DNA of 64,000 bases from Macrolepiota albuminosa (taxonomy: Eukaryota; Basidiomycota; Agaricomycetes; Agaricales; Agaricaceae), in assembly GCA_027475525.1 (NCBI GenBank), contig JAMWFC010000055.1:786212-850211 (forward strand). The letters are read 5' to 3'. The notes below the pieces were generated by a model. That model was not told the origin of the DNA. It saw nothing but the letters and a program-made list of their open reading frames with translations, and searched no databases. This document shows positions 23,259 through 62,368 of the stretch, in pieces (within the stretch, counting starts at the first letter, position 1; each line of letters starts with the position of its first letter). The translations under genes and the position numbers were made by a program.

Positions 23259-23584
23259 TGATAGGACCCCATACAGGTTAGGCGCATCAACGGCAGGCTC
23301 GGCACCGGCTCCGGAAACCTTGCCGCACTCGTTCCGAACTTAGCGCACGCGTTCTACCCATTTTAAGCCATTTCTGACGGCCGCGCACGGCAAGAAGCAG
23401 ATCCAATCAGTGATAGCGCCGATCGGCAGACAGAATGACAACTGACAGATGGCATCAGTCACTGACGACAGCGCTTAGCGAGAAGCTTGATGATCTATCA
23501 AAAACTGACGGACAGCTTGGCGTTTGACCTTGGCGTCTGACACCGCTTACCGTCTCGATTTGGCGCCCAACGTCGCTTAGGGGT

Positions 23585-23738
23585 TCTGACAGACAGAAGG
23601 GTGATGGAGTGATGGTTTAGCTTCGCGATCTGTCACCTGGCGTCGCTAAGGCTCTTGAATGTCTGACAGACAGAAGGGTGATGGAGTGATGGTTTAGCTT
23701 CGCGATCTGTCACCTGGCGTCGCTAAGGCTCTTGAATG
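23585..23738. repeat. 77-bp tandem duplication 3
   Basis: Copies 23585-23661 and 23662-23738 inside the B1 5' LTR; absent from the B1 3' LTR. Confidence 0.95.
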
Positions 23739-23765
23739 GGCGGTAGGGATCTGAAACCGTTGGAG

Positions 23766-23919
23766 CTACCCCTTTGAAATTTTCCAGTTTACCGCACTCT
23801 GGCGTCATTAGCCACTGGCGACGGTGAACTCCTTGTAGTATACTACCCCTTTGAAATTTTCCAGTTTACCGCACTCTGGCGTCATTAGCCACTGGCGACG
23901 GTGAACTCCTTGTAGTATA
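23766..23919. repeat. 77-bp tandem duplication 4
   Basis: Copies 23766-23842 and 23843-23919 inside the B1 5' LTR; absent from the B1 3' LTR. Confidence 0.95.
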
Positions 23920-24363
23920 TATTTACTTACCGACTTGTACATACAGAACAGCAGACGAATAGACCACAGTTTCCCCCTTACTTCAGTCTCCCTTACGCTC
24001 AAGAGCTCATTTACGCTACGGTCGGCAACGTCAAAACTCATCGGTAGTTACAGACGTTCGCCAACACTCGACATACTCGCGCCTTGCAACTACGGCAGGC
24101 ATTATCGACGCTTAGAACCTCGCTAAGCTTATCGTGCTCTTGCCGCTCACCCTTGCCGTGTTCACTTACCGCATTTCCTTAGGCGCTTTACCTTAGCGCT
24201 TACCACTTGCCGACCCCGTTACCGACTTTTACCCTTTTTCACAGACGCGTTCTCTGGGACCTGCCCGGGACTCCTCAACACACTTATAGCGCGCCCAACG
24301 CACACTCTTGGTTAGGTAACACTTTAGCTACATTTGTTACTGACCAAACTTTGGGCGTCATCA

Positions 24364-24743: not shown

Positions 24744-27062
24744 ATGGAACAACAAGTTCAGCGCATGCCGCCACGCAACCACTTCTCGGCACCGAAATGG
24801 GACGAGACCAAGCCACGGGAGCTCTCCCAGTATTTCAAGGAGTTGGAGTATTTATTCAGAGACTGTAACATTACCGACCACACGCAGATGAAGGAGTACG
24901 CGGCAAGATACGTATCGTACGACACGGCAGAGACTTGGACTGGTCTTTCCGAGTTTGCAGCGCTCGTTCCCGCCACGCCGACAGCTCCCGCCCAAGGCGC
25001 TTCGTATGAGGACTGGAAGACAGCAGTGATCCAGCTGTACCCTGGCGCTGAGGAGGCTACGCGATACACGGTAAACGAGTTGCAGAAATTAGTTCAGGAA
25101 TCTTTCGACAACGGCACTTCTTCTCTTGGCGCATTCTCTACGTATTACCGCGAATTCCAGAAAATCGCTAGGTGGCTTCTGCAGAACGGCAAGCTCTATA
25201 TTAACGAAGAGCGTCGCCTGTTCCAGCAGGGCATCCCGACTTCACTGTGGACGCGTATTGCTCGTCGCCTAGAGATAGTTCATCAGGCCCATCACCCTGA
25301 CGAGCCCTATAACGTTGCCGACGTCTTTGAAGCCGGTAAATGGGTTCTTAAGGGAACGGACACTGGCGTTGGACTGCAACGCGCTAGGATGAGCCCACCC
25401 CCTGAGCGAACTAACGGTATCATTCCCATCCCGCCTCCTGTTGCCGACTTCGTTAAGAAAGAGGAGCTCAATGCTGCTATTACCGCCGCTGTCGCTTCCG
25501 CGATGACACGTATCGAAACTATGATTACCACCAACCTGACTGCTAACCGACCCGCTAACGTACCCGCACCTGGCCCTTGCCACTTCTGTGGGGAAATTGG
25601 CCACACCATGACTAGAGGACGCTGCGCTACCCTCGAGAATTACGTTCGCCAAGGTAGAATTCGACGAGCTATCGACGGCAAGATAGTCCTCACCACTGGC
25701 GCCACCATCCCCAACTACCCAGACAAGAAGTCCTTCCAGGAGCGGGTAGATGAATGGCATAGGCGCAATCCAGGACAAATCGTTACCGGCACGCTATCTG
25801 GCAACGCCAACCCCGACCCGGAACAGGCGACCCAACAGCAGATGATTCACGAGGTCCTACATTTCGACAGCGTTGGCGACCACCCTACTTTTTCGCGGGA
25901 AGAGCGTATCGCCAAGCTGCAGCAGGAATTAGATTCGCTAAAGAACCAGGTCTTTGATGGGGTTGAAGTTAAGCAGCCTAAACAACCTCTTAAAGGATAC
26001 AAGCCGATGCCTCCCGCTAGCAAGTTACCGACACCTGCTCCTGCCGCACCTCCTGCCACTGCCCCTGCTCCTGCTCCTGCCTCAGAACCATCGTCGTCCG
26101 CTACCGCTCCCGAACCGCCCTTGCCGCCTCTCCATCCCTACTCAGGGATTCCCGACCGTTATCACGCTCCCGCACAACGAAACTTTGCCGCTCCCGAGAA
26201 ACGTCCTGAGGGTGGCTACCGACCTACTGCGCCAATATTCGATATCGAGAAATCCAACCACGTCTTTAACCGCATCATGAAAACCAATGTTACCTTATCA
26301 GTAGAAGAGCTTTGTAGTATTGCTCCCGACGTCCGCAACCAAGTCAAGACGGCAGTCACTCCTCGACGACCCTTGGCGACAGCCGTTGCCGAAGTTGATG
26401 AACTCGACGACGCGCTTCCTGGTTTCTCTGTTACCATCGACCCTCCCGACACTGAAGACACTCTTGCCGACCCCATCGCTAACGCCACCTCTGTGGACCC
26501 AGTGGAGACCTACCTTAGGTCAGTCGACCACGGCGAAGACCCAGCAATCCTTACCGTCGCCCAAGAATCACACGCTATCCGCTCGGTAGCGCTAACCGTA
26601 GACAACAAGCACGAGGTAGAGGCAATCGTAGATAGCGGGTCTCAGATTATTTCTATGGCAGCAGAAGTCGCTAATGATCTAGGCCTCATTTACGACCCTA
26701 CGGTGATACTAAACATGCAGAGCGCTAACGGTACGGTAGACAGATCCCTCGGCCTCGCCAAGAATGTGCCGTGCACCCTTGGCGACATTACCTTTTATCT
26801 TCAGATCCACATTTTACGCTCCCCAGCATACGACTTATTACTCGGCAGACCTTTTGACGTCTTGGCACGATCAGTCGTCAAGACGGTTACCGACGAGGAA
26901 ACGACCCTCACAATTAGCGACCCCAATTCCGGAATCCGACGAACGGTGCCAACGTTCCCTAGGGGACAACGAAAAGGCGCCCGCGCTAAGCCCCCGGAGT
27001 TTACCGACCAGCACGCCAACGAGCCTCCCCACCGGTGTTTTCACAGACCATCGAGGAGGTGA
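24744..27062 (+). CDS. B1 Gag-protease
   Basis: 772 residues from the first ATG; the frame is open further upstream. The N-terminal capsid-like region (PKWDETKPRELSQYFKELEY) is followed by a zinc knuckle CHFCGEIGHTMTRGRC (about 278-293). Its spacing is C-x2-C-x4-H-x6-C rather than the usual last x4. A Pro/Ala-rich linker leads to a retropepsin domain with the catalytic VDSGSQ (about 629-633) and LLLGRPF. Gag packages the element RNA and the protease matures the polyproteins. It overlaps pol by 73 nt in the -1 frame. Confidence 0.92.
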   Translation: MEQQVQRMPPRNHFSAPKWDETKPRELSQYFKELEYLFRDCNITDHTQMKEYAARYVSYDTAETWTGLSEFAALVPATPTAPAQGASYEDWKTAVIQLYPGAEEATRYTVNELQKLVQESFDNGTSSLGAFSTYYREFQKIARWLLQNGKLYINEERRLFQQGIPTSLWTRIARRLEIVHQAHHPDEPYNVADVFEAGKWVLKGTDTGVGLQRARMSPPPERTNGIIPIPPPVADFVKKEELNAAITAAVASAMTRIETMITTNLTANRPANVPAPGPCHFCGEIGHTMTRGRCATLENYVRQGRIRRAIDGKIVLTTGATIPNYPDKKSFQERVDEWHRRNPGQIVTGTLSGNANPDPEQATQQQMIHEVLHFDSVGDHPTFSREERIAKLQQELDSLKNQVFDGVEVKQPKQPLKGYKPMPPASKLPTPAPAAPPATAPAPAPASEPSSSATAPEPPLPPLHPYSGIPDRYHAPAQRNFAAPEKRPEGGYRPTAPIFDIEKSNHVFNRIMKTNVTLSVEELCSIAPDVRNQVKTAVTPRRPLATAVAEVDELDDALPGFSVTIDPPDTEDTLADPIANATSVDPVETYLRSVDHGEDPAILTVAQESHAIRSVALTVDNKHEVEAIVDSGSQIISMAAEVANDLGLIYDPTVILNMQSANGTVDRSLGLAKNVPCTLGDITFYLQIHILRSPAYDLLLGRPFDVLARSVVKTVTDEETTLTISDPNSGIRRTVPTFPRGQRKGARAKPPEFTDQHANEPPHRCFHRPSRR

Positions 27063-30000
27063 TTGGCGACGATCACGGAGATGTAGCGCTAACGCTGGAA
27101 TTTGACCATTCAACTGGTCTTGTAACTGTTTTGTCTACTGCTTTTCTTGACCAAGACGTTTTAACTACTTTACCCACTACCGACGCAGAACCTTCCCAGA
27201 AAAACCAAAATATTACCGACTCCTCTCTTGCCTACTTGTACCTTACCGCTTCCGAGTCATTTCAAAATATTGCGTCTACCGATACTTATCTCACCACTCT
27301 TCCCGGAGCCTCGTCTCCTGCCGTTCTTGGACTTGCCGCCCCTCAGGCTACAGTTCCCCTTTCCACCTCTGTGTATAACCAAGCTAACGCTCCCAAAAGG
27401 AAAGGGGTACAAGTTAAAAAGAAATATAAGCCAGTTGCGCTTAAAACAAAACCAATCGCTACGCACTCTCCCGAGACGTTTAGAATCGAGCGCCAGATCA
27501 TAGGCAACCCTCTTGCCGACCTGCCGACCTTGTCACCAAATCCGCCACCCTTTCAGCCCACAGGACGTTTTACCAAGGAACGCCAACAGCAGTTCGCCAA
27601 GGAGCACGACACAGGATTTTTGACCAAAGATGAGTTGAACGTCCTTACCGATCTTGTCGCTAAGCAAGACAAAGCCTTTGCTTGGGAGGACTCCGAACGC
27701 GGCAGTCTACGTACAGATTTCTTCCCGCCTGTCGTCATCCCGACCATCCCCCACGTGCCGTGGACTGAGCACAACCGACCGTTACCGCCTGGAATCGAAG
27801 CCGAGGTCTGCCAGATTATTAGGACTAAGATACAGGCTGGCGTCTACGAGCCCTCTAATAGTTCTTACCGCTCCCGTTGGTTCTGTGTTCTCAAAAAGAA
27901 CGGCAATCTACGCATAGTTCACAGTCTTGAACCGCTGAATAGAGTCACCATACGACACTCTGGCGTACCGCCTTTCCCTGACCACTTTGCCGAGTCCTTT
28001 GCCGGGCGTATCTGTGGCGCCACCCTTGATCTTTACGTTGGCTACGATGAGCGCTTGATTCACCCTTCTTCCCGCGACCTCACTACGTTTCAAACTCCGT
28101 TTGGCGCACTGCGCCTAGTCACCTTACCGATGGGCTGGACAAACTCAGTCCCCATATTCCATGACGACATCACATTCATCCTCCAACCCGAGATACCGCA
28201 TAACGTCCTTAGCTTCATCGACGATGTTGGCGTCAAAGGCCCCAAAGACTGGCGACTCGTAAACGGCTTACCGGCAACCCATCCCGAGAACTCCAACATT
28301 CGCTTAGCGCTATGGGACTTTTTCCAGCTGCTCAATCGAGTTCTCCAGCGTATGAAGTATAGCGGTGGTACGTTTAGCGGTCACAAACTCCTCCTTTTTT
28401 CCAGCTGCTCAATCGAGTTCTCCAGCGTATGAAGTATAGCGGTGGTACGTTTAGCGGTCACAAACTCCTCCTTGCGCGCCAAGGTTCAAATACTTGGTCA
28501 CATCTGCACTCCCGACGGTCGTGTTCCCGACGAGTCTCGCTTAGCACTCCTAGAGTGCTGGGGTCCTTGCCGCGACTTATCTGAAGTTCGCGCCTTTCTT
28601 GGCACCGTTGGCGTTCTTAGGATATTCGTCAAAAACTTTGCCCATCGCGCACACGCCCTTAACCGACTCACCCGCGCTAACGAGCCCTTCGAATTTGGGC
28701 CAGACCAGGTCACTGCCCAACGCGACTTAGTAAAAGCTCTGCAGGACGCCAAGCCCCTAGTCCCCATCGATTATACCTCTGCCGACCCTGTTATCTTGGC
28801 GGTGGATACCTCGTACATTGCCGTTGGCTATTTCCTGTGCCAGTGCCTTAGCGACAATCGGACCCTGTTATCTTGGCGGTGGATACCTCGTACATTGCCG
28901 TTGGCTATTTCCTGTGCCAGTGCCTTAGCGACAATCGAAACAGCGACGCTACAACCGCTTTGGGTCTATCACGCTAAACGACAGAGAGTCTCGCTACAGT
29001 CAGCCTAAGCTAGAGCTCTATGGACTCTTCAAAGCCTTCCGGTCGCTAAAGATGTATTTGATTGGCGTACGGAACCTTATCGTTGAAGTCGACGCTAGGT
29101 ACATCAAAGGCATGCTGCAGAATCCCGATATCCAGCCATCCGCTAGCATGAATCGGTGGGTAGTCGCCATCCTCATGTTCCACTTTGAGTTGGTACACGT
29201 CAAGAGCTCTTTCCACGGACCAGATGGACTCTCTAGGCGACCACGGCAGCCTGGCGACCCGGTAGTGGACCCTCAGGCTGATAGCGATTTCGAGGACTGG
29301 GTCGACCGACTACATGGTTTCGTGCACCTCATACAACAACCGATTCCCCTACTACGACGGCAACAGCCTACCAGCATATTTTTGCATCCCATTGTCCCTT
29401 ACCGCCCCGAGACCTTTAGCGCACCCCTCACATTCTACACGGCAAGCATCCTTGGACAAGACTTGCCTCCAGTAAAAGTCGTACAGGAACCCCAGTCGCT
29501 AAGAGAAGACAGCAGAAACCTGACCTACGATGCCGTCCCTTGCCTCCAGTAAAAGTCGTACAGGAACCCCAGTCGCTAAGAGAAGACAGCAGAAACCTGA
29601 CCTACGATGCCGTCCCCGATCCGCCAAGGCAAAGGCGGAAGACAGTCGCTTGTTACTAGTCGACCAATGGATACAAGACCTTAAGCGACCCCCAGACCTT
29701 ACCGACGAACAATACGCTACCTTTATCCGATACGCTACCCACTTCTTCTTTACCGACAACCGACTTTGGCGACGAAATCGAGATGGCGCCCACAAGTTGA
29801 TCATCAAGCCAGAAGGTCGCTTACGGGTCTTGCGCGCTATGCATGACGAGCTAGGACATCGAGGTCTGTACGCTACCCGAGCTTCTCTGCTAGAACGATT
29901 CTGGTGGCCACACGCTAGCGCCGACATCGCCTGGTACATCAGGACTTGCCACCTCTGCCAAATCCAACAAACGCGCCAAGTACTCATACCGCCAACCGTT

Positions 30001-31011
30001 GCAACGCCAGCTCCCCTCTTCAGCAAAATCTACGTCGACACCATGCATATGCCCAAGTCTGGTCGCTACAAGTATATCATTCAAGGTCGTTGTTCGCTAA
30101 TCCACTGGCCTGAATTTCGAATGCTCCAAAGAGAAAATACCGACGCGGTCGCCAAGTGGCTATTTGAAGACGTCATCTGCCGTTGGGGAGCGCTAAGAGA
30201 AATCGTCACGGATAACGGTGCGCCCATCATCAAAGCGCTAACTTACCTCGCCAAGAAATACAAAATTCACCACATTCGAGTATCTGGCTACAACAAGCGC
30301 GCCAATGGACTGGTAGAGAGACCCCACTTTGACGTTCGGCAAGCACTCTTCAAGGCAGTCGATGGCGACGAGTCTCGTTGGAGCGAAGCGACCTATTCAG
30401 TGTTCTGGTCGGAAAGAGTTACTATTCGTAAGCGCATGGGTTGTTCTCCCTACTACGCGGCTACTGGCACCCATCCTTTACTCCCTGCCGACATTATAGA
30501 AGCAACTTATCTTCAGCCAGCACCCAACAGCATCTTAGCGACTACCGACCTTATCGCCAGACGAGCTATTGACCTCCAACGAAGGAAAGAAGATTTGGAG
30601 CGACTTCACGAGGTAGTCTTTAGCGCCCGTCGCCAAGCAGCCCTGCGATTCGAAACCGAGCATAGCGCCACTATCAAAGATTACAACTTCCCGAGGGGTG
30701 CGCTAGTGCTTATGCGCAACTCCAAAATCGAAACATCATACAACAAGAAAATGCGCCCTCGCTATCTAGGACCTTTGGTAGTTATCTCTCGTAACCGTGG
30801 AGGCGCTTACGTGCTCTGTGAATTAGATGGTTCAGTACTACATCGACCTGTTGCCGCTTTTCGCCTATTACCGTATCTCGCCAGGGAACAAATCGACTTG
30901 CCGCTTGAAGCGCTAGATATCGACACCGCCAAGCTTAGGGAACTTGAAGAAACAGAATTATTGGACGATGATGACTTACCGACTCTAGTTGAAGAGGAAG
31001 AAAATGATTAG
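26990..31011 (+). CDS. B1 Pol (RT, RNase H, integrase), broken by duplications
   Basis: The frame opens at 26990, -1 relative to gag-pro, with no nearby ATG; expression by frameshift or re-initiation is inferred. RT carries FIDDVGVKG (the YxDD box, with both Asp present). RNase H has VILAVDTSYIAVGYF. The integrase has an HHCC finger (HDELGHRGL to CHLCQ), then YVDTMHM, VTDNGAP and GLVERPHF. Three 77-bp duplications (28319, 28784, 29462) shift the frame; together they add 231 bp, so the end is in frame again. The uninterrupted B2 copy indicates these breaks are assembly effects. Confidence 0.9.
28319..28472. repeat. 77-bp tandem duplication 5
   Basis: Copies 28319-28395 and 28396-28472 in B1 pol, just after the RT active site region; absent from B2. 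Confidence 0.95.
28784..28937. repeat. 77-bp tandem duplication 6
   Basis: Copies 28784-28860 and 28861-28937 in B1 RNase H; absent from B2. Confidence 0.95.
29462..29615. repeat. 77-bp tandem duplication 7
   Basis: Copies 29462-29538 and 29539-29615 in B1 pol between RNase H and integrase; absent from B2. Confidence 0.95.
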
Positions 31012-31430: not shown

Positions 31431-33836
31431 TTAATCGCTCTCATCGTCCATCGGCAGGGAGTCGTCGGAAATCGGCAGCGAAGAGTCGCGAAGAGGAAGC
31501 AGGTCGCCCGGCAAGATGTTATTGGCGGCCTGCCAATCGATGGCGGCTTGGCAATCTGCCTGGTAGTCGCGAAGGACGCTAAGGCTACGACCAAGGTTGG
31601 CATAGCGCAACCTCAGCGCCATGAGCTGCCCTCGGACTCGCTCCCGTTCTCGCCCCATTGCCGCCTCCATCGTTGCCGCCCTCCTCGAAAACCGCTCCAG
31701 CATCTCCCGCGGGTTAAGCGCCACTACCGGGTACACGAGGTCTTGTCCCAGCCAGTTGAAGGCGTCGCCTGTGACCGTTGGCTGCGGTTGAGGCGTCCAA
31801 GCAGGATTGATCCTGGCGATTACGGGGCGCCTAGGCTCCAGACCGGCAACGTCCTCCGGGTCTGAAACCTCCCAAGGGGCCACGCTACTGTAGGGAGGTA
31901 GCCAGCGCCACTCAGGCTCCTCCCTGGCGACTCCTGCCGCTTCCTCGCCCTCTCCCGCTACCACCTCCTCGTCGCCTTGGCGCTGCGTCGCCAAGGTTTC
32001 ATCCACCTCCCCTTCAGCATCCTCATCCCCTCCCATTGCCGCCCCCTCTGCCTTCTCCTCCCCCATCTCGACGTCTGCAGGAGCGTCTTCCCGCTCCTCT
32101 TGAGGCGCCGAGTCGCCAACCGCTTCCCGTTCTCCTACCTCCTGCTCCTCACCAAGGGACCTCGCCGCCAAATGAATAGGCGACAGAAGGCCACTTGGGC
32201 CTGCCTCAGAATCGCGAGGAGGCAGGCGACTCGCCGCCAAGGCCTTTTCGAGATCGGCCATTTCGATGTCTTGAGGGGTTGGCGAGGGGGAAGGCGACGA
32301 CACTACCCGAGGTCGCTTGGCTTTGCCCTTCCCTTTGCTGGGGGAAGGGGCTTGTCGTTTTTCTGGGACCAAAGTCCCTTGGCGCTCGCCGGCGCCTCGG
32401 TTGCCGACTGTTTCTGATCCATCTCCTTGGCGCGTCGGCAACGCCAAGGAGGCTCGTCCAACGACTGCCATACCACCGGCAGCGACCTTCTTCCTCTGGC
32501 CCTCCACAAACTCCCTGGCCCTCCTCACCAAAACTGCGCGCGAAAATGTCTTCTCGACAAGTGCGTCTGGCGCGCCGCCACGCTCGCGACTTTTGGCCCC
32601 GTCGATGGTGCAAGCGCGCTTGAGGGCACCACAGCGATAGCAAGGCTGGGCCCCAGTCGGGAACCAGCAGCCTTCTGGGTCGTTATCCGCCCAGCACTTG
32701 TCACACTAGCGCTATAAGTCAGAGAAAGCTCAAAAAGATAGAAGAGTCACTTACCGCTCCCCGCGCCTCCTTGAATGCTTGCCGTGTCGCTAAGGAAACG
32801 GTCTTCTTCCCCTTCATTTCCTCCATTACGACCCCGGCCTCCTGCCCCTCATCCAGGACTGCCTCCTCGCGACGCGGCAACAAAAGTCCTTTGAGCTCCT
32901 TGTCGTCAAAGCTCGATTGTGTTGGCGCCTACAATGACTTAGTGATTTCAGGCCAAAAAGAAGAGTACCACTCACCGCGTATTGAGGAGCCGCCTTGCGA
33001 CTCTGTAAATGTCGTTAGCGACCGTCGGCAACGGCAAGCAAAAACAGCACTTACCTTGCGTTTGGAAGCACCTGCCGGCTTCCTCGGCGAGCCCGACTTG
33101 CTAGCCGGCAGCACTGGGCTCAAGGTGCTGCCGGCGCGACCTACCTTGCCGGATCCCTCTGCTACCGCCTGCCTCTCAACGGCAGGCGCCTTCCCCGCAG
33201 CCACTCCCTCCATCTCCTCCGCCAACTCCCTGACCCGCTCCCGCTCCTCCAGAGCCCTGGTGATCTCCCGGGCATCCTGAGACACTTCCTCTTGCCGCGT
33301 CGCCAGTTCCTCGGCCACTTGCATGCGCGCCAGAGGCGCCAACACCTCCTGTTTGCTATGGGGCGACAAGTCAGACCAAAGCTAAGTCAAAAGAATGGGT
33401 TAGGAATACTTACTCAGGCGCAGGCGCGCTTACCGTCATCGGCAAGGCACCCGAAAGGATATCCTCCAACTCGTCCTCAATGGTGGGGACAGGAGGAGGC
33501 GCCTAGGAACCCAATCAGCTAGCGACACGGCAAGAACTAGAAGCTACTTACAAATCGAGCATAGGGCGCTAGCCACTCTGCGCCACGATGATCCAGGTAC
33601 CGCGACCGGCACCATTCCCGAACCTCGATTTCGCGATCCCATCCCACGCCAAGAACGCGCACCTCCAGCCACCGCTCGTACAGCTTCATGACGGCAACCA
33701 CCAAATTTACTGGCGCGTCCGCGCCAACGCCTTCGATCCGCTTAAGAAAATTGTTCGCCTTTTCGATATAGGCCGAGGCGGCGTCTTGAGCCTCACGGGA
33801 GGGAACAGGTGGCGGAGTTGGAATGCGGAAAGACAT
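31431..33836 (-). CDS. Gene X of B1: antisense spliced Zn-Cys protein
   Basis: I do not recognise a named family. Minus-strand exons: 33552-33836, 33434-33502, 33055-33381, 32976-33002, 32755-32928 and 31431-32705. Every exon is a multiple of 3, so all introns are phase 0; the product is about 718 residues. Exon 1 is a compact domain starting MSFRIPTPPPVPSREAQ, with VREWC. Exon 3 is charged and helical. Exon 6 opens with six cysteines: CDKCWADNDPEGC, then CYRC and C, in the pattern C-x2-C-x8-C-x8-C-x2-C-x6-C. This is close to fungal Zn2Cys6 DNA-binding clusters but with a longer first loop. A basic REFVEGQRKK region, a Ser/Glu-rich middle and a C-terminal coiled coil (about 600-690) ending DDSLPMDDESD follow. 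Being antisense to the genomic RNA explains how introns survive retrotransposition. DNA binding is inferred. Confidence 0.85.
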
Positions 33837-34004
33837 TTTATTTAATTGAGCGCCAGGAAAAGATGGGGAGGAGAAACGAAGTCCACACTCATGCGCCAGG
33901 ACTATAAACCAAATCTCAAGAACGCACGGGCCACTTGTCACAAAAACGGTAACGGTAGCCTTATTTGGTGACTGAGGACAGTCAATTTTTCAGTTGGGGG
34001 AAGA
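33837..34004. promoter_or_regulatory. Gene X 5' region and B1 polypurine tract
   Basis: 168 bp between the gene X start (33836, minus) and the 3' LTR. The plus-strand tract GGGGGAAGA at 33996-34004 abuts the LTR and should prime plus-strand DNA synthesis. The gene X promoter must lie here and/or in the LTR read antisense. Confidence 0.7.
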
Positions 34005-34956
34005 TGATAGGACCCCATACAGGTTAGGCGCATCAACGGCAGGCTCGGCACCGGCTCCGGAAACCTTGCCGCACTCGTTCCGAACTTAGCGCACGCGTTC
34101 TACCCATTTTAAGCCATTTCTGACGGCCGCGCACGGCAAGAAGCAGATCCAATCAGTGATAGCGCCGATCGGCAGACAGAATGACAACTGACAGATGGCA
34201 TCAGTCACTGACGACAGCGCTTAGCGAGAAGCTTGATGATCTATCAAAAACTGACGGACAGCTTGGCGTTTGACCTTGGCGTCTGACACCGCTTACCGTC
34301 TCGATTTGGCGCCCAACGTCGCTTAGGGGTTCTGACAGACAGAAGGGTGATGGAGTGATGGTTTAGCTTCGCGATCTGTCGCCTGGCGTCGCTAAGGCTC
34401 TTGAATGGGCGGTAGGGATCTGAAACCGTTGGAGCTACCCCTTTGAAATTTTCCAGTTTACCGCACTCTGGCGTCATTAGCCACTGGCGACGGTGAACTC
34501 CTTGTAGTATATATATTACTTACCGACTTGTACATACAGAACAGCAGACGAATAGACCACAGTTTCCCCCTTACTTCAGTCTCCCTTACGCTCAAGAGCT
34601 CATTTACGCTACGGTCGGCAACGTCAAAACTCATCGGTAGTTACAGACGTTCGCCAACACTCGACATACTCGCGCCTTGCAACTACGGCAGGCATTATCG
34701 ACGCTTAGAACCTCGCTAAGCTTATCGTGCTCTTGCCGCTCACCCTTGCCGTGTTCACTTACCGCATTTCCTTAGGCGCTTTACCTTAGCGCTTACCACT
34801 TGCCGACCCCGTTACCGACTTTTACCCTTTTTCACAGACGCGTTCTCTGGGACCTGCCCGGGACTCCTCAACACACTTATAGCGCGCCCAACGCACACTC
34901 TTGGTTAGGTAACACTTTAGCTACATTTGTTACTGACCAAACTTTGGGCGTCATCA
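34005..34956 (+). repeat. B1 3' LTR
   Basis: 952 bp, TGATAGGACCCC to GGGCGTCATCA, followed by ACGC target duplication. By eye it holds 20 copies of TTRSCG or its complement, against about 2 expected. Confidence 0.95.
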
Positions 34957-36128: not shown

Positions 36129-37166
36129 TGATAGGACCCTATACAGGTTAGGCGCATCAACGGCAGGCTCGGCACCGGCTCCGGAAACCTTGCCGCACTC
36201 GTCCCGAACTTAGCGCGCGCGTTCTACCTATTTTAAGCCATTTCTGACGGCCGCGCACGGCAAGAAGCAGATCCAATCAATGATAGCGCCGACGGCAGCA
36301 GGAATGACAACTGACAGATGGCATCAGTCACTGACGACAGCGCTTAGCGAGAAGCTTGATGATCTATCAAAAACTGACGGACAGCTTGGCGTTTGACCTT
36401 GGCGTCTGACACCGCTTACCGTCTCGATTTGGCGCCCAACGTCGCTTAGGTGTTCTGACAGACAGAAGGGTGATGGATTGATGGTTTAGCACCGCGATCT
36501 GCCGCCTGGTGGCGCCAAGGGTCCTCAAAGGACGGTAGGGATCGGAAACCGTTGGAGCTACCCCTATGAAATTTTCCAGTTTACCGCACTTTGGCGATGG
36601 TTGGTCACTGGCGACGGTGAACTCCTTGTAGTATATATATTACTTACCGACTTGTACATACACAATCATCAGATCAGACGAATAGACCACAGTTTACTCC
36701 CCTTACTTCAGTCTCTCCCTTACGCTCAAGAGCTCATTTACGCTACGGTCGGCAACGTCAAAACTCATCGGCAGTTGCAGACGTTCGCCAACACTCGACA
36801 TACTCGCGCCTTGCAACTACGGCAGGCATTATCGACGCTTAGAACTTCGCTAAGCTTATCGTGCTCTTGCCGCTCCATACTCGCGCCTTGCAACTACGGC
36901 AGGCATTATCGACGCTTAGAACTTCGCTAAGCTTATCGTGCTCTTGCCGCTCCCCTTGCCGTCTTCACTTACCGCTTCTTCCTAGGCGCTTTACCTTAGC
37001 GCTTACACTTGCCGGCACCCGTTACCGACTTTTCACCTTTTTCACAGACGCGTTCTCTGGGACCTGCCCGGGACTCCTCAAATTACTTTTAGCGCGCCCA
37101 ACGCACACTCTTGGTACGGTAACACAATTGTTACATTTGTTACTGACCAAACTTTGGGCGTCATCA
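36129..37166 (+). repeat. B2 5' LTR
   Basis: TGATAGGACCCT to GGGCGTCATCA, 1038 bp as given, 961 after collapsing one 77-bp duplication. TATA-like run near 36633. Dense TTRSCG words. Confidence 0.93.
36799..36952. repeat. 77-bp tandem duplication 8
   Basis: Copies 36799-36875 and 36876-36952 in the B2 5' LTR; absent from the B2 3' LTR at the same place. Confidence 0.95.
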
Positions 37167-37627: not shown

Positions 37628-37656
37628 ATGGAACAACAAGTCCAGCGCATGCCGCC
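37503..37656. repeat. 77-bp tandem duplication 9
   Basis: Copies 37503-37579 and 37580-37656 around the B2 gag start codon; not duplicated in B1. Confidence 0.95.
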
Positions 37657-39940
37657 ACGCAACCACTTCTCAGCACCGAAATGGGACGAGACCAAGCCAC
37701 GGGAGCTTTCCCAATATTTCAAGGAATTAGAGTATTTGTTTAGGGATTGTAACATTACCGACCACACGCAGATGAAGGAGTATGCGGCAAGATACGTGTC
37801 GTATGACACGGCAGAGACGTGGACAGGTTTGACCGAGTTTGCCGCCTTTGTCCCTGCCGCCCCACCCGTTCCAGCCCAAGGCGCTTCGTATGAGGACTGG
37901 AAGACGGCAGTAATCCAGCTGTACCCTGGCGCAGAGGAGGCTACCCGATACACGGTAAACGAGCTCCAGAAACTAGTACAGGAATCTTTCGACAACGGCA
38001 CATCTTCGCTTGGCGCGTTCTCTACGTATTACCGCGAGTTCCAGAAAATCGCTAGGTGGCTCCTGCAGAACGGCAAGCTCTATATTAACGAGGAGCGTCG
38101 CCTATTTCAGCAGGGCATCCCGACTTCACTGTGGACTCGTATTGCCCGTCGCCTAGAGATAGTTCATCAGGCCCATCACCCTGACGAGCCCTATAACGTT
38201 GCCGACGTCTTTGAAGCCGGTAAATGGGTTCTCAAGGGAACGGACACTGGCGTTGGTATACAACGCGCTAGGACGAGCCCACCCCCTGAGCGAACCAACG
38301 GTATTATTCCCATCCCGCCTCCCACTACCGACTTCGTTAAGAAAGAGGAGCTCAATGCTGCCATTACCGCCGCTGTCGCTTCCGCCATGACACGTATCGA
38401 AACCATGATCACCACCAACCTCACGGCTAACCGACCCGCTAACGTACCCGCACCTGGCCCTTGCCACTTCTGTGGGGAAATTGGCCATACTATGACTAGA
38501 GGACGCTGCGCTACCCTCGAAAACTATATTCGGCAAGGAAGAATCCGTAGGGCTATCGACGGCAAGATAGTTCTTACCTCTGGCGCCACTATTCCCAACT
38601 ACCCCGACAAGAAGTCCTTCCAGGAGCGGGTAGATGAATGGCATAGGCGCAATCCAGGACAAATCGTTACCGGCACGCTATCTGGCAACGCCAACCCCGA
38701 CCCTGAACAGGCGACCCAACAGCAGATGATTCACGAGGTCCTACATTTCGACAGCGTTGGCGACCGCCCTACTTTCTCGTGGGAAGAGCGTATCGCCAAG
38801 CTGCAACAGGAGTTGGATTCGCTAAAGAACCAGGTCTTTGATGGGGTTGAAGTTAAGCAGCCTAAACAACCTCTTAAAGGATACAAGCCGATGCCTCCCG
38901 CTAGTAAATTACCGACGCCTGCTCCTGCCGCACCGCCTGCTACTGCCCCTGCTCCTGCTCCAGAACCCTCGTCGTCCGCTACCGCTCCCGAACCGCCTTT
39001 GCCGCCCCTACATCCCTATTCAGGGATTCCCGACCGATATCATGCTCCCGCCCAACGAAACTTTGCCGCTCCCGAGAAACGTCCTGAGGGTGGCTACCGA
39101 CCTACCGCGCCAATTTTCGACATCGAGAAATCCAACCACGTCTTCAACCGTATTATGAAAACCGCCGTTACCTTGTCAGTAGAAGAGCTTTGCAGTATTG
39201 CTCCCGACGTCCGCAACCAGGTCAAGACGGCAGTCACTCCCCGACGACCCTTGGCGACAGCCGTTGCCGAGGTTGATGAACTAGACGATGCGCTTCCTGG
39301 TTTCTCTGTTACCATCGACGCTCCCGACACCAATGAACCTCTTGCCGACCCCATCGCTAACGCCACCTCGGTGGACCCAGTGGAGACCTACCTTAGATCT
39401 GTGGACCATGGAGAGGACCCCGCCATCCTTACCGTCGCTCAAGAATCACACGCTATCCGCTCAGTAGCGCTAACCGTAGACAACAAGCACGAAGTAGAGG
39501 CAATCGTGGATAGCGGGTCTCAGATTATTTCTATGGCAGCAGAAGTCGCTAACGATCTAGGCCTCATTTACGACCCTACGGTGATACTAAACATGCAGAG
39601 CGCTAACGGTACAGTGGACAGATCTTTAGGCCTCGCCAAGAACGTGCCATGCACCCTTGGCGACATTACATTTTACCTTCAGATACACATCTTACGCTCC
39701 CCAGCATACGACTTATTACTCGGCAGACCCTTCGACGTCTTGGCGCGATCAGTCGTCAAGACTGTTACCGACGACGAGACGACATTAACCATTAGCGACC
39801 CTAATTCCGGAATCCGACGAACGGTGCCAACGTTCCCTAGGGGACAACGAAAAGGCGCCCTCGCTAAGCCACCGGAGTTTACCGACCAGCACGCCAACGA
39901 ACGACCCCACCGGTGTTTTCACAGACCATCGAGGAGGTGA
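37628..39940 (+). CDS. B2 Gag-protease
   Basis: 770 residues, about 95 percent identical by eye to the B1 protein. Differences cluster in the Pro/Ala-rich linker (two residues shorter) and near ETWTGLTEFAAF. Zinc knuckle CHFCGEIGHTMTRGRC and protease VDSGSQ are intact. It overlaps pol in the -1 frame as in B1. Confidence 0.93.
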   Translation: MEQQVQRMPPRNHFSAPKWDETKPRELSQYFKELEYLFRDCNITDHTQMKEYAARYVSYDTAETWTGLTEFAAFVPAAPPVPAQGASYEDWKTAVIQLYPGAEEATRYTVNELQKLVQESFDNGTSSLGAFSTYYREFQKIARWLLQNGKLYINEERRLFQQGIPTSLWTRIARRLEIVHQAHHPDEPYNVADVFEAGKWVLKGTDTGVGIQRARTSPPPERTNGIIPIPPPTTDFVKKEELNAAITAAVASAMTRIETMITTNLTANRPANVPAPGPCHFCGEIGHTMTRGRCATLENYIRQGRIRRAIDGKIVLTSGATIPNYPDKKSFQERVDEWHRRNPGQIVTGTLSGNANPDPEQATQQQMIHEVLHFDSVGDRPTFSWEERIAKLQQELDSLKNQVFDGVEVKQPKQPLKGYKPMPPASKLPTPAPAAPPATAPAPAPEPSSSATAPEPPLPPLHPYSGIPDRYHAPAQRNFAAPEKRPEGGYRPTAPIFDIEKSNHVFNRIMKTAVTLSVEELCSIAPDVRNQVKTAVTPRRPLATAVAEVDELDDALPGFSVTIDAPDTNEPLADPIANATSVDPVETYLRSVDHGEDPAILTVAQESHAIRSVALTVDNKHEVEAIVDSGSQIISMAAEVANDLGLIYDPTVILNMQSANGTVDRSLGLAKNVPCTLGDITFYLQIHILRSPAYDLLLGRPFDVLARSVVKTVTDDETTLTISDPNSGIRRTVPTFPRGQRKGALAKPPEFTDQHANERPHRCFHRPSRR

Positions 39941-42900
39941 TTGGCGATGATCACGGAGATGTGGCGCTAACGCTGGAATTTGACCATTCAACTGGTCTTG
40001 TAACTGTTTTGTCTACTGCTTTTCTTGACGAAGACGTTTTAACTACTTTACCCACTACCGACGCAGAGCCTTCCCAGAAAAATCAAAATATTACCGACTC
40101 CTCTCTTGCCTACTTATATCTTACCGCCTCAGAATCGTTTCAAAGTTTTGCGTCTACCGATACCTATCTTACCACTCTTCCCGGAGCCTCGTCTCCTGCC
40201 GTTCTTGGACTTGCCGCTCCTCAGGCTACAGTTCCCCTTTCCACTTCTGTATATAACCAAGCTAACGCTCCCAAAAGGAAAGGGGTACAAGTCAAAAAGA
40301 AATATAAGCCAGTTGCGCTTAAAACAAAGCCCATCGCTGCGCACTCTCCCGAGACGTTTAGGATCGAGCGCCAGATTATTGGCGACCCTCTTGCCGACAT
40401 ACCTATTTTATCGCCGAACCCGCCACCCTTTCAGCCCACGGGACGTTTTACCGCGGAACGCCAACAGCAGTTCGCCAAGGAGCACGACACAGGATTTTTG
40501 ACCAAAGATGAGTTGAATGTCCTTACCGATCTCGTCGCTAAGCAGGATAAAGCCTTCGCCTGGGAGGACTCAGAACGCGGCAGTCTACGTACAGATTTCT
40601 TCCCGCCTGTTGTTATCCCGACCATTCCTCACGTACCGTGGACTGAGCACAACCGACCGCTACCGCCTGGAATTGAAGCCGAGGTCTGCCAAATCATTAG
40701 GACCAAGATACAGGCTGGCGTCTACGAGCCCTCAAATAGTTCTTACCGCTCCCGCTGGTTCTGTGTCCTCAAGAAGAACGGCAATCTACGCATAGTTCAC
40801 AGTCTCAAGCCGCTAAATAGAGTTACAATACGACACTCTGGCGTACCGCCTTTCCCTGACCACTTTGCCGAGTCCTTTGCCGGGCGCATTTGTGGCGCCA
40901 CCCTTGACCTCTACGTTGGCTACGATGAACGCTTGATTCACCCTTCTTCCCGCGACCTAACTACGTTTCAAACTCCGTTTGGCGCACTGCGCCTAGTCAC
41001 CTTACCGATGGGCTGGACAAACTCAGTCCCTATATTCCACGACGACATCACGTTTATCCTCCAACCCGAGATACCGCATAATGTCCTAAGTTTCATCGAC
41101 GACGTTGGCGTCAAAGGCCCCAAAGACTGGCGACTCATGAACGGCTTACCGGCGACCCATCCCGAGAACCCCAATATTCGCTTAGCGCTATGGGACTTCT
41201 TCCAGCTGCTCAATCGAGTCCTCCAGCGTATGAAGTATAGCGGTGGGACTTTTAGCGGTCACAAACTTCTCCTTTGCGCGCCAAGGTTCAAAATCCTTGG
41301 TCACATCTGCACTCCCGACGGTCGCGTTCCCGACGAGTCTCGCTTAGCACTCCTGGAGCGATGGGGCCCTTGCCGCGACTTATCTGAAGTTCGCGCCTTT
41401 CTTGGCACCGTTGGCGTTCTCAGGATATTCGTCAAAAACTTTGCCCATCGCGCACATGCCCTTAACCGACTCACCCGCGCTAACGAGCCCTTCGAATTTG
41501 GGCCAGACCAGGTTACCGCTCAACGAGACTTGGTAAAAGCTCTGCAGGACGCCAAGCCCCTAGTTCCCATCGACTATAGCTCTGCCGATCCTGTTATCTT
41601 GGCGGTGGATACCTCGTACATTGCCGTTGGCTACTTTTTGTGCCAATGCCTTAGCGACAATCGGAAACAGCGACGCTACAACCGCTTTGGGTCTATTACG
41701 CTAAACGACAGGGAGTCTCGCTACAGTCAGCCTAAGCTAGAGCTCTATGGACTCTTCAAAGCCTTCCGGTCGCTAAAGATGTACTTGATTGGCGTGCGGA
41801 ATCTGATTGTTGAAGTCGACGCTAGGTACATCAAGGGCATGCTGCAGAATCCTGATATCCAGCCGTCCGCTAGCATGAATCGGTGGGTAGTCGCCATCCT
41901 CATGTTCCATTTTGAGCTGGTACACGTCAAGAGCTCTTTCCACGGCCCAGATGGACTCTCTAGGCGACCACGGCAGCCTGGCGACCCGGTAGTGGACCCT
42001 CAGGCTGATAGCGATTTCGAGGACTGGATCGACCGCTTACATGGTTTCGTGCACCTCATACAACAGCCAATTCCCTTACTACGACGGCAACAGCCTGCCA
42101 GCATCCTTCTACATCCCATTGTCCCTTACCGCCCCGAGACCTTTAGCGCACCCCTCACATTCTACACGGCAAGCATTTTCAGTCAAAATTCGCCTCCAGT
42201 AAAAGTCGTACAAGAGCCCCATCCGCTAAGGGAAGACAGCAGAAACTTGACCTACGATGCCGTCCCCCGATCCGCCAAAGCAAAGGCAGAAGACAGCCGC
42301 TTGTTAATCGTTGAACAGTGGCTACAAGACCTTAAGCGACCCGCAGGCCTTACCGACGAACAATACGCGACCTTTATCCGCTACGCTACCCGTTTCTTCT
42401 TTACCGACAACAGACTTTGGCGACGAAATCGAGATGGAGCCCACAAGCTGATCATCAAGCCAGAAGGTCGCTTACGAGTCTTGCGCGCTATGCATGACGA
42501 GCTAGGTCATAGAGGTCTGTACGCTACTCGAGCTTCTCTGTTAGAACGCTTCTGGTGGCCACACGCTAGTGCCGACATCGCCTGGTACATCAGGACCTGC
42601 CACCTCTGCCAAATCCAACAGACACGCCAAGTGCTCATACCGCCAACCGTTGCAACGCCAGCTCCCCTCTTCAGCAAAATCTACGTCGATACCATGCACA
42701 TGCCCAAATCTGGTCGCTATAAGTACATCATTCAAGGTCGTTGCTCGCTAATCCACTGGCCTGAGTTTCGCATGCTTCAAAGAGAAAATACCGAGGCGGT
42801 CGCCAAGTGGCTATTTGAGGACGTCATTTGCCGTTGGGGAGCGCTAAGAGAAATCGTCACGGATAACGGTGCGCCCATCATCAAAGCGCTAACCTACCTC

Positions 42901-43662
42901 GCCAAGAAATACAACATTCACCACATTCGAGTGTCTGGCTACAACAAGCGCGCCAATGGCCTGGTAGAGAGACCCCACTTTGACGTTCGGCAAGCGCTCT
43001 TCAAGGCAGTCGATGGTGACGAGTCTCGTTGGAGCGAAGCGACCTATTCAGTATTTTGGTCGGAAAGAGTTACCATTCGTAAGCGCATGGGTTGTTCTCC
43101 CTATTACGCGGCTACTGGCACCCATCCGTTACTCCCTGCCGACATTATAGAAGCAACCTATCTTCAGCCAGCACCCAACAGTATCTTAGCGACTACCGAC
43201 CTTATCGCCAGACGAGCTATTGACCTCCAACGAAGGAAAGAAGATTTGGAGCGACTTCACGAGGTAGTCTTTAGCGCCCGTCGCCAAGCAGCCCTACGAT
43301 TCGAAACCGAGCATAGCGCTACCATCAAAGATTACAACTTCCCGAGAGGAGCGCTAGTGCTTTTGCGCAACTCCAAAATCGAGACCTCATACAATAAGAA
43401 AATGCGCCCGCGCTATCTAGGACCCTTGGTAGTTATCTCTCGTAACCGTGGAGGCGCTTACGTGCTCTGTGAATTAGATGGTTCAGTACTACATCGACCT
43501 GTTGCCGCTTTTCGCCTACTGCCATACCTCGCTAGGGAACAAATCGACTTGCCGCTGGAAGCGCTAGATATTGACACCGCCAAGCTACGAGAACTTGAAG
43601 AAACCGAATTATTGGACGATGATGACTTACCGACTTTAGTTGAAGAAGAAGAAATTGACTAG
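39913..43662 (+). CDS. B2 Pol (RT, RNase H, integrase), intact
   Basis: One frame of about 1250 residues with no ATG at its start; it is -1 to gag-pro, and the overlap extends upstream to about 39868. RT FIDDVGVKG lies near residue 394. RNase H has VILAVDTSYIAVGYFL. The integrase zinc finger (HDELGHRGL ... CHLCQ) lies at about 860-900, followed by core motifs YVDTMHM, VTDNGAP and GLVERPHF (spacing from the second Asp to Glu close to 35). The GPxV-like C-terminal domain is LGPLVVISRN, followed by an acidic tail (LDDDDLPTLVEEEE). No chromodomain, unlike C. It supplies all activities needed for reverse transcription and integration. Confidence 0.94.
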   Translation: MFSQTIEEVIGDDHGDVALTLEFDHSTGLVTVLSTAFLDEDVLTTLPTTDAEPSQKNQNITDSSLAYLYLTASESFQSFASTDTYLTTLPGASSPAVLGLAAPQATVPLSTSVYNQANAPKRKGVQVKKKYKPVALKTKPIAAHSPETFRIERQIIGDPLADIPILSPNPPPFQPTGRFTAERQQQFAKEHDTGFLTKDELNVLTDLVAKQDKAFAWEDSERGSLRTDFFPPVVIPTIPHVPWTEHNRPLPPGIEAEVCQIIRTKIQAGVYEPSNSSYRSRWFCVLKKNGNLRIVHSLKPLNRVTIRHSGVPPFPDHFAESFAGRICGATLDLYVGYDERLIHPSSRDLTTFQTPFGALRLVTLPMGWTNSVPIFHDDITFILQPEIPHNVLSFIDDVGVKGPKDWRLMNGLPATHPENPNIRLALWDFFQLLNRVLQRMKYSGGTFSGHKLLLCAPRFKILGHICTPDGRVPDESRLALLERWGPCRDLSEVRAFLGTVGVLRIFVKNFAHRAHALNRLTRANEPFEFGPDQVTAQRDLVKALQDAKPLVPIDYSSADPVILAVDTSYIAVGYFLCQCLSDNRKQRRYNRFGSITLNDRESRYSQPKLELYGLFKAFRSLKMYLIGVRNLIVEVDARYIKGMLQNPDIQPSASMNRWVVAILMFHFELVHVKSSFHGPDGLSRRPRQPGDPVVDPQADSDFEDWIDRLHGFVHLIQQPIPLLRRQQPASILLHPIVPYRPETFSAPLTFYTASIFSQNSPPVKVVQEPHPLREDSRNLTYDAVPRSAKAKAEDSRLLIVEQWLQDLKRPAGLTDEQYATFIRYATRFFFTDNRLWRRNRDGAHKLIIKPEGRLRVLRAMHDELGHRGLYATRASLLERFWWPHASADIAWYIRTCHLCQIQQTRQVLIPPTVATPAPLFSKIYVDTMHMPKSGRYKYIIQGRCSLIHWPEFRMLQRENTEAVAKWLFEDVICRWGALREIVTDNGAPIIKALTYLAKKYNIHHIRVSGYNKRANGLVERPHFDVRQALFKAVDGDESRWSEATYSVFWSERVTIRKRMGCSPYYAATGTHPLLPADIIEATYLQPAPNSILATTDLIARRAIDLQRRKEDLERLHEVVFSARRQAALRFETEHSATIKDYNFPRGALVLLRNSKIETSYNKKMRPRYLGPLVVISRNRGGAYVLCELDGSVLHRPVAAFRLLPYLAREQIDLPLEALDIDTAKLRELEETELLDDDDLPTLVEEEEID

Positions 43663-61445: not shown

Positions 61446-62368
61446 TGATGACGCCCAAAGTTTGGTCAGTAACAAATATAACTATAGTGTTACCGTACCA
61501 AAACCTTGCGTTGGGCGTGCTTTAAGTGATGTGAGGAGTCCCGGGCAGGTCCCAGAAAATGCGCCTAGGGAAGGAGCGGTAAGTGAACCTGGCAAAGGTA
61601 AGCGGCAAGAACCTGGTAAGCTTAGCAAGGTCTAAGCGTCAATAATGCCTGCCGTAGCTGCAAGGCGCAAATGTGTCGAGTGTTGGCGAGCGTCTGGCTT
61701 AGCAAGGTCTAAGCGTCAATAATGCCTGCCGTAGCTGCAAGGCGCAAATGTGTCGAGTGTTGGCGAGCGTCTGTAACTGCCGATGAGTTCAACGTTGCCG
61801 ACCGTAAATGAAATATTGGGCGTAAGGGAGACTGAAGAAAGGGGAGCAGGAAACTCTGGTCTGTTATTCTGTTTACAAGTCAGTAAGTACTTTTATACTA
61901 CAATGAGTTCACCGTCGCCAGTGGCCAATGATGCCAGAGTGCGGTAAACTAGAAGATTTCATAGGGGTAGCTCCAACGGTTTCAGATCCCTACCGTCCAT
62001 TCAAGAGCCTTAGCGACGCCAGGCAACAGATTGCAAAGCTAAACCATCACTCCATCACCCTTCTGTCCGTCAGAGCACCTAAGCGATGTCAGGCGCCAAA
62101 TCGAGACGCTAAGCGGTGTCAGACGCCAAGGTCAAACGCCAAGCTGTCCGTCAGTTTTTGATAGATCATCAGGCTTCTCGCTAAGCACTGTCGTCAGTTG
62201 TCATTCTGTCTGCCGTCAGCGCTATCACTGATTGGATCTGCTTCTTGCCGTGCACGGCCGTCAAATATTGCCAAAAATGGTTAGTTAGCGCACGCTAAGG
62301 TATCCCGGACCTGTGCCGTGTTGCCATAGCCTGCCGTTGATGCGCTGATCCTGTATGGGGTCCTATCA
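61446..62368 (-). repeat. B3 3' LTR
   Basis: On the plus strand TGATGACGCCC to TCCTATCA; 923 bp as given, about 846 after collapsing one 77-bp duplication, so roughly 100 bp shorter than in B1 and B2. Confidence 0.87.
61620..61773. repeat. 77-bp tandem duplication 14
   Basis: Copies 61620-61696 and 61697-61773 in the B3 LTR. Confidence 0.95.

What the first reader, a model, noticed from the sequence alone, without database searches (positions are those of the whole stretch)
31431..33836. LTR retrotransposons that carry an intact, spliced gene on the antisense strand
Seen: between pol and the 3' LTR, each of three B elements has a six-exon gene on the strand opposite gag-pol (31431-33836, 44095-46529, 62539-64000 partial). 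Exons 1, 2 and 5 are 285, 69 and 174 nt in all three; exons 3 and 4 vary only by whole codons; all introns are phase 0. Copies are clearly diverged in sequence yet have no stop. Inference: the protein is under selection and is part of the element, not a passenger. The antisense orientation also explains how introns survive an RNA-mediated life cycle. Extra antisense ORFs are known in some plant Ty3/gypsy elements; I know of no described fungal case with this protein, but could not search.
Basis: partly seen in the sequence, partly recalled or inferred. Interest (0 to 1): 0.88.

Follow-up and report, generated by a model that had tools for sequence, protein, structure and literature searches.

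The report
Hypervariable backward gene in fungal retrotransposon
A family of jumping genes in a fungus carries, facing backwards, an extra five-intron gene that evolution has kept working but that differs far more between copies than the rest of the element does, suggesting an unknown protein the element uses to manage its own activity.

Summary
Copies A and B of a young Ty3/gypsy element carry, between pol and the 3' LTR and antisense, a gene of six phase-0 exons (718 and 728 aa); copy C runs off the window. In 35 of 35 distinct copies read from this genome the 3' LTR starts 166-174 bp upstream of the ATG. 124 of 150 listed pol C-termini have exon 1 on the opposite strand, about 2.8 kb away. 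Median dN/dS is 0.13. So it is a gene of the element, not a passenger.

Gene dS reaches 1.41 where pol dS is 0.19-0.29, and exon blocks are reassorted.

Caveat: 40 of 40 perfect tandem duplications in the fetched loci have period exactly 77, probably an assembly mark, so linkage between gene type and pol type is unreliable. 104 of 136 copy pairs share no exact 77-base run inside the gene.

Protein: no Pfam or PDB match; outside this genome the homologues found are all Termitomyces. Best guess: a nuclear self-regulator. Kind: the known class of antisense extra genes (plants; Botrytis brtn), in a new variant.

The parts
33552..33836 (-). Copy A antisense gene, exon 1 (95 aa, predicted four-helix domain)
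33434..33502 (-). Copy A exon 2 (69 nt)
33055..33381 (-). Copy A exon 3 (327 nt)
32976..33002 (-). Copy A exon 4 (27-nt micro-exon)
32755..32928 (-). Copy A exon 5 (174 nt)
31431..32705 (-). Copy A exon 6 (cysteine cluster C-x2-C-x8-C-x8-C-x2-C-x6-C, basic stretch, acidic low-confidence region, long C-terminal helix, stop)
33837..34004 (-). Leader between antisense ATG and 3' LTR: TATA-like GTTTATAGTCC, pyrimidine tract, invariant TGACTGTCCTCAGTCACCAAATAAGG block, and the PPT of the sense strand; probable antisense promoter
23259..24363 (+). Element A 5' LTR, preceded by ACGC
24744..27062 (+). Element A gag and aspartyl protease ORF
27035..31011 (+). Element A pol (RT-RNaseH-integrase), reading frame interrupted in this assembly
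34005..34956 (+). Element A 3' LTR, followed by ACGC
46245..46529 (-). Copy B exon 1
46128..46196 (-). Copy B exon 2
45760..46074 (-). Copy B exon 3
45679..45708 (-). Copy B exon 4
45455..45628 (-). Copy B exon 5
44095..45408 (-). Copy B exon 6
36129..37166 (+). Element B 5' LTR, preceded by ACGC
37628..39940 (+). Element B gag and aspartyl protease ORF
39913..43662 (+). Element B pol ORF, 1249 aa
46699..47737 (+). Element B 3' LTR
62539..62823 (+). Copy C exon 1 (element C lies on the - strand)
62873..62941 (+). Copy C exon 2
62992..63261 (+). Copy C exon 3
63313..63342 (+). Copy C exon 4
63390..63563 (+). Copy C exon 5
63612..64000 (+). Copy C exon 6, cut by the window end
61446..62368 (-). 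Element C 3' LTR (79% identical to that of A)

Best explanation
The gene is a standing third gene of this Ty3/gypsy family. It is transcribed antisense from its own promoter in the ~170-bp leader beside the 3' LTR and spliced. Because its introns lie in antisense in the genomic RNA, they are not removed during retrotransposition. The product is a 700-730-aa protein: an N-terminal helical domain, a cysteine (zinc-like) cluster, basic NLS-like stretches, an acidic, probably disordered region and a long C-terminal helix. The layout suggests a dimeric nuclear DNA- or chromatin-binding protein. I propose that it regulates expression of its own element in the nucleus, most likely by promoting transcription or escape from host silencing, and preferentially for its own type; rare types would then gain, which keeps many old, reassorted types alive. 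Shown: position, exon structure in DNA, purifying selection, hypervariability. Inferred: promoter, splicing in the cell, nuclear site, DNA binding, direction of regulation, rare-type advantage.
For: Exons 1, 2 and 5 of fixed length in 34 of 34 distinct copies. Median dN/dS 0.131 over 66 pairs. A leader motif with the TATA-like block occurs at 389 places in the genome, up to 2 mismatches, against 0 for the reversed control; the TATA-like block and a 26-bp block are unchanged in 35 of 35 leaders. Hypervariability: mean divergence LTR 6.3%, leader 4.9%, exon 1 9.1%, exons 2-5 with introns 22.0%, exon 6 21.2% then 15.6%, pol 5.4% (16 of 22 long copies used). Gene dS/pol dS 1.0-5.7, median 3.8, in 28 pairs of 8 copies. 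Of 12 pol-anchored loci, L051, L053 and L058 have pol 96-97.5% identical to B, yet exon 6 only 49-54% identical to A and B in amino acids; L052 has the same exon 6 with a broken pol of 58-88% in pieces. Reassortment: L030 and L031 differ at 37 columns in the first 210 nt and at 2 in the rest of the gene; L030 and L032 are identical for 2490 nt after the first 210; L009 and L014 share exon 1 at 100% and are 65-75% identical in the next four bins; L061 mixes class II and class III parts (read by eye). Models: exon 1 four helices, pLDDT 86; exon 6 helix 332-394, pLDDT mostly 90 or more.
Against: No RNA, protein or localisation data. No Pfam, PDB-sequence or fold match, so DNA binding rests on layout alone. 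The cysteine cluster is not modelled confidently (pLDDT 34-38) and is not recognised as Zn2Cys6. No exon reaches dN/dS 1 in any pair with dS above 0.1 (maximum 0.76, in the 9-10-codon exon 4), so protein-level diversifying selection is not seen. The blocks of the leader named above do not change with gene type, so no co-varying target was found. The assembly seems to have k=77 joins, and collapse of near-identical copies could make pol look too uniform. One pol bin at +4900 also shows 27% divergence, at a place where A carries such a mark.
Confidence: 0.42

Rival explanations
1. Self-restriction: the protein limits transposition of its own type (copy-number control like Ty1 p22, or antisense HBZ), so that elements with a new type escape.
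For: Ty1 is a close parallel: the divergent gag behind p22 was acquired by recombination onto an older backbone, and restriction depends on the gag type present (PMC7055915, abstract and passages). The pattern here is the same: diverse module, common backbone.
Against: A self-harming gene should be lost from many copies, yet it is intact in 21 of 32 distinct copies (a sample that favours young copies) and under strong constraint. Pfam shows no gag domain in it.
Confidence: 0.2
2. Accessory replication factor: the protein works in particle or pre-integration-complex import, or integration targeting, and its diversity is incidental.
For: Basic stretches and a long helix; strong constraint; PMC7264820 raises a role like retroviral accessory proteins for plant antisense ORFs.
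Against: It should then co-vary with gag and pol, which are uniform; distances in exons 2-6a correlate only 0.37-0.42 with pol (exon 1 0.53, exon 6b 0.67).
Confidence: 0.18
3. RNA-level selection: overlapping sense and antisense RNAs make dsRNA, and nucleotide divergence here lets a copy escape small RNAs raised against other copies; the protein is only under ordinary constraint.
For: Divergence is mostly synonymous (gene dS up to 1.75, dN/dS 0.13) and its peak ends about 190 nt past the stop codon, where a transcript could end.
Against: Classes I and II also differ by about 0.2-0.4 dN in exons 3 and 5. No small-RNA data.
Confidence: 0.12
4. Assembly artefact: mosaic copies and uniform pol are products of a k=77 graph assembly.
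For: 40 of 40 perfect tandem duplications in L009-L061 (some loci overlap) and 13 of 13 in the window have period 77. 32 of 136 copy pairs do share an exact run of 77 or more inside the gene.
Against: Per-position diversity does not depend on linkage. 104 of 136 pairs share no such run (winA-winB longest 29), so a k=77 graph could not switch between those types there. Several mosaic copies carry no mark in the stretch fetched (L009-L012, L014, L030-L032). Pol differences have dN/dS 0.03-0.09, so they look real.
Confidence: 0.08

Closest known systems
Antisense additional ORFs (aORF-3R) of plant Ty3/gypsy elements: Grande gene23, RIRE2, Retand, PvRetro13 (PMC7264820, parts 1-2 of 3 read; PMC11963269, passages)
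   Same: Between pol and 3' LTR, antisense, in most copies of a family, function unknown; Grande gene23 has its own promoter and a nuclear product according to PMC7264820.
   Different: Here a six-exon gene with a cysteine cluster; no TRP28 domain. The word 'intron' occurs 0 times in the main text of PMC11963269. Hypervariability of such an ORF is not described in the passages I saw.
brtn of Boty/BcGypsy1 in Botrytis cinerea (Zhao et al. 2011; only its title and citing passages seen)
   Same: A fungal gypsy-type element with an additional antisense gene.
   Different: An ascomycete element. I could not read the paper, so protein similarity and intron content were not compared.
HTLV-1 HBZ (its splicing and bZIP nature recalled; mentioned in PMC11963269, and HTLV's antisense promoter in PMC7264820)
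   Same: Works-like comparison: antisense regulator read from the 3' end of the element.
   Different: No bZIP match in Pfam; promoter probably beside, not inside, the LTR.
Ty1 p22/p18 copy-number control (PMC7055915, abstract and passages)
   Same: A diverged module on a shared backbone, spread by recombination; type-specific effect.
   Different: p22 is a sense, internally started piece of gag; this is an independent antisense gene.
VANC anti-silencing proteins of VANDAL transposons in Arabidopsis (PMC5735166, abstract)
   Same: Works-like comparison: transposon-encoded, sequence-specific regulators whose targets differ between relatives.
   Different: Other class of transposon, in a plant; no homology tested; no co-varying target found here.

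Membership tests
Ty3/gypsy LTR retrotransposon | RT-RNaseH upstream of integrase in pol | tested here: met
   RNaseH domain at residues 530-662, integrase zinc-binding domain at 850-904 of B's pol
Ty3/gypsy LTR retrotransposon | LTR pairs with short target duplication | tested here: met
   LTR pairs at least 99.4% identical per aligned piece in A and B; ACGC on both sides
Antisense additional ORF between pol and 3' LTR (aORF-3R) | position and antisense orientation | tested here: met
   35 of 35 distinct copies LTR-adjacent; 124 of 150 pol C-termini; none of the other 26 has exon 1 on the same strand, all 26 are undecided because the lists are cut
Antisense additional ORF between pol and 3' LTR (aORF-3R) | coding constraint in most copies | tested here: met
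   dN/dS 0.078-0.195 in 66 of 66 pairs; 21 of 32 distinct copies with intact frames
Antisense additional ORF between pol and 3' LTR (aORF-3R) | own antisense promoter | tested here: inconclusive
   conserved TATA-like leader, 389 places against 0 in control; no expression data
Retand TRP28 antisense protein | Pfam PF04195 domain | tested here: not met
   no Pfam family at E up to 1
brtn of Boty | homology to the brtn protein | not tested
   sequence not available to me
Fungal Zn2Cys6 transcription factor | Pfam Zn_clus match and C-x2-C-x6-C spacing | tested here: not met
   no Pfam match to Zn_clus; first spacing is x8, not x6 (family spacing recalled)
HBZ-like bZIP regulator | bZIP domain | tested here: not met
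   no bZIP match; long C-terminal helix only
VANC anti-silencing family | homology to VANC | not tested
   only a functional comparison

The most novel reading that the evidence does not exclude
An LTR retrotransposon family that keeps a polymorphic, reassorting antisense gene under rare-type advantage, in effect an immunity or recognition locus by which retrotransposon types in one genome tell self from non-self, while the rest of the element stays uniform.
Probability: 0.3. Interest if true: 0.88.

Novelty: new variant of a known kind. Interest (0 to 1): 0.72.

Why it matters
Antisense extra genes of LTR retrotransposons have been known for years with no established function (PMC7264820). 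Here many copies in one genome (389 leader motifs), a clear gene structure and an extreme contrast in diversity between this gene and its flanks give a natural experiment: they point to what selection acts on and allow direct tests of self-regulation, anti-silencing or RNA-level escape. It also suggests that a five-intron gene can be carried by a retrotransposon, and that fungal annotations (here Termitomyces 'hypothetical proteins') may count such genes as host genes.

Tried and rejected
Passenger or captured host gene: rejected for the sampled copies (dN/dS, position). A host progenitor outside elements was not found, but the hit lists are cut at 150, and only 124 of 248 exon-1 places have one of the 150 listed pol C-termini in place, so it is not excluded.

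Mutation hot spot: unlikely. Copies with an identical gene exist (18 of 231 pairs; 11 of 120) with pol differing by 0.3-6%, though assembly collapse could contribute, and divergence falls at both borders.

Chance ORFs: rejected. Protein identity by Pfam, PDB sequence and Foldseek: nothing significant (best Foldseek E 2.4 for exon 1; the exon-6 model was not searched). Relatives in viral contigs: none. Distribution: 40 of 40 protein homologues are Termitomyces, from two genomes (only 7995 candidates scored); their DNA context could not be fetched. Shared TGACTG/GTCAGT words in leader and LTR were chosen after the fact, a lead only. My first reading of reassortment between gene type and pol type was downgraded after the 77-bp mark was found. 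Searches for a printed description of this gene; none found in the listings; most subscription papers are not held.

Full report
WHAT IS THERE. The window lies in contig C90 of an unnamed 100-Mb, 129-contig genome. Element A (LTRs 23259-24363 and 34005-34956) and element B (36129-37166 and 46699-47737) are Ty3/gypsy elements: gag-protease, then a pol with RNaseH before integrase. Their LTR pairs are at least 99.4% identical per aligned piece and flanked by ACGC, so the insertions are young. Element C is inverted, more distant (LTR 79% identical to A) and cut by the window end.

THE GENE. Between pol and the 3' LTR, antisense, A and B have six exons coding for 718 and 728 aa; C has the first five and part of the sixth. 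Introns are 46-53 nt, GT-AG and phase 0. One search lists 35 rows, 34 distinct copies: exons 1, 2 and 5 are 285/69/174 nt in every one, and all but two splice sites are canonical (the exon-4 acceptor was shifted by 2 nt where the alignment missed it). Two copies run off their stretch. Of the 32 distinct copies that could be followed, 21 have an intact frame (one, L033, has a changed splice donor) and 11 are broken.

SELECTION. Among 12 distinct intact copies (the 21 with near-identical ones collapsed), dN/dS by Nei-Gojobori, my own script, is 0.078-0.195 in 66 of 66 pairs, median 0.131; exon medians over pairs with dS above 0.1 are 0.09, 0, 0.19, 0.32, 0.09, 0.12, and no exon exceeds 0.76 in any such pair. 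Pairs are not independent and no likelihood test was run. Third codon positions carry 4008 of 5969 differences in exons 1, 2 and 5; exon indels are multiples of three in 94% of cases, intron indels in 17%.

PLACE. One search found the LTR beside most copies and beside the rest: 35 of 35 distinct copies (32 in 30 fetched loci, 3 in the window), with a leader of 166-174 bp. Eight further diverged exon-1 loci: 8 of 8 have the LTR next to exon 1. Twelve pol-anchored loci, one of them B itself: 12 of 12 have antisense exon 6. In coordinate lists 124 of 150 pol C-termini have exon 1 on the opposite strand, median 2826 bp away; none of the other 26 has one on the same strand, and they are undecided because each list was cut at 150. 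The sample was chosen by similarity to A's exon 1 and favours young copies.

PROMOTER. The leader carries a TATA-like block and a 26-bp block with a dyad, both unchanged in 35 of 35 copies, and a pyrimidine tract. A 22-base motif of it occurs 389 times in the genome with up to two mismatches, its reversed control 0 times. Downstream of the stop, the gene strand has a T run and TATATATA, which may act in polyadenylation (inference).

HYPERVARIABILITY. In 16 of 22 long copies (6 dropped because pol or gene is rearranged: L015, L016, L019, L022_1501, L024_6001, L025), mean pairwise divergence is 6.3% in the LTR, 4.9% in the leader, 9.1% in exon 1, 22.0% in exons 2-5 with introns, 21.2% and 15.6% in the two halves of exon 6, and 5.4% in pol; in 100-bp bins it falls from 21% to 7% about 190 nt past the stop. 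One pol bin (+4900) stands at 27%, where A carries a 77-bp mark, and one (+4200) could not be scored. In 28 pairs of 8 copies gene dS is 0.24-1.41 while pol dS is 0.19-0.29; the ratio is 1.0-5.7, median 3.8; gag of A and B has dS 0.29. Introns inside the gene differ by 0.01-0.56 per site, so in diverged pairs the whole gene region, not only codons, is old. Among the pol-anchored loci, L051, L053 and L058 have pol 96-97.5% identical to B but exon 6 only 49-54% identical to A and B in amino acids.

REASSORTMENT. L030 and L031 differ at 37 columns in the first 210 nt and at 2 after that; L030 and L032 are identical over 2490 nt after the first 210. WinA and L014 share exon 1 at 100% and are 65-84% identical after it; winA and L010 share exons 1-5 at 99% or more and are 82-90% identical in exon 6. 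L061 mixes class II and III parts (read by eye).

CAVEAT. All 40 perfect tandem duplications of 25 bp or more in L009-L061 (some loci overlap) and all 13 in the window have period 77, in unrelated sequence. That is what unmerged k=77 contig overlaps look like, so I take it as an assembly mark, not biology (inference). It makes linkage over kilobases, above all between pol segments, unreliable, and 5 of the 11 broken genes carry a mark inside. It does not explain the diversity peak, which is counted position by position. Among 17 copies without a mark inside the gene, 104 of 136 pairs share no exact run of 77 there; 32 do (A-B longest 29), so a k=77 graph could not have switched between most types. 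Collapse of near-identical copies could make pol look somewhat too uniform.

PROTEIN. Exon 1 models as four helices (pLDDT 86) with no Foldseek match below E 2.4. Exon 6 models poorly (mean 58) except around helices 48-75 and 332-394. The cysteine cluster looks zinc-binding by eye but matches no Pfam family. Homologues: 28 of 28, then with a profile 40 of 40, are Termitomyces hypothetical proteins, 31-60% identical; of 12 aligned, 7 show all six cysteines and 11 the C-terminal region (counted by eye; several are partial gene models). Pol itself has at least 1265 relatives, the named fungi seen in the best 120 being Mycena and Agrocybe, so the antisense gene appears to have a narrower distribution than its pol, as far as these capped searches show. 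Whether the Termitomyces genes also sit in elements could not be tested.

MECHANISM. I favour a nuclear self-regulator that helps its own type to be expressed (0.42), over self-restriction (0.20), an accessory replication factor (0.18), RNA-level escape from silencing (0.12) and artefact (0.08). Low dN/dS with high dS fits old alleles kept by rare-type advantage as well as nucleotide-level escape; the data do not separate them.

WHAT IS KNOWN. [quoted passage not shown] Retand's mostly carry TRP28 (PMC11963269, passages), which is absent here. Ty1 offers a precedent for a diverged module on a shared backbone with type-specific restriction (PMC7055915, abstract and passages). I found no printed description of this gene in the searches listed. 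Hence: new variant of a known kind.

Noticed in passing
window 20508, 22821, 28319, 36799, 47586, 55766, 61620 and others; L013, L016, L019, L024, L061: Perfect two-copy tandem duplications, all of period exactly 77, in unrelated sequence: 13 of 13 in the window and 40 of 40 in L009-L061. Likely a mark of a k=77 graph assembly; it matters for any reading of reading frames or mosaic repeats in this genome.
   Followed up: yes
3' flanks of the LTRs in L009-L038 and the window: 27 of 33 copies with a readable LTR end have CG at positions 2-3 of the four bases after the 3' LTR (ACGC, CCGC, GCGC ...), and ACGC stands on both sides of A and B: a possible CpG preference of the integrase.
   Followed up: partly
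window 22122-22838 (-) and 48412-50677 (-): Remains of other gypsy-type sequence: chromodomain with Tf2-type SH3, a retroviral-type protease, and a DUF4939 match below its cut-off; stretches 21609-21908 and 50792-51091 are 99% identical.
   Followed up: no
window 33959-33984, 46653-46678, 62389-62414: Invariant 26-bp leader block with dyad TGACTG-TCC-TCAGTCA; related half-sites recur in the LTR. A possible regulator site, chosen after the fact.
   Followed up: partly
window 52540-52737: A stretch 72% identical to the start of A's gag, so a further, more distant relative of the family lies between B and C.
   Followed up: no
window 2152-3204 and 7897-8556: Host-type genes: an iron-hydrogenase-like (Nar1-type by recall) protein and a glycosyl hydrolase family 18 (chitinase-type) fragment.
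   Followed up: no
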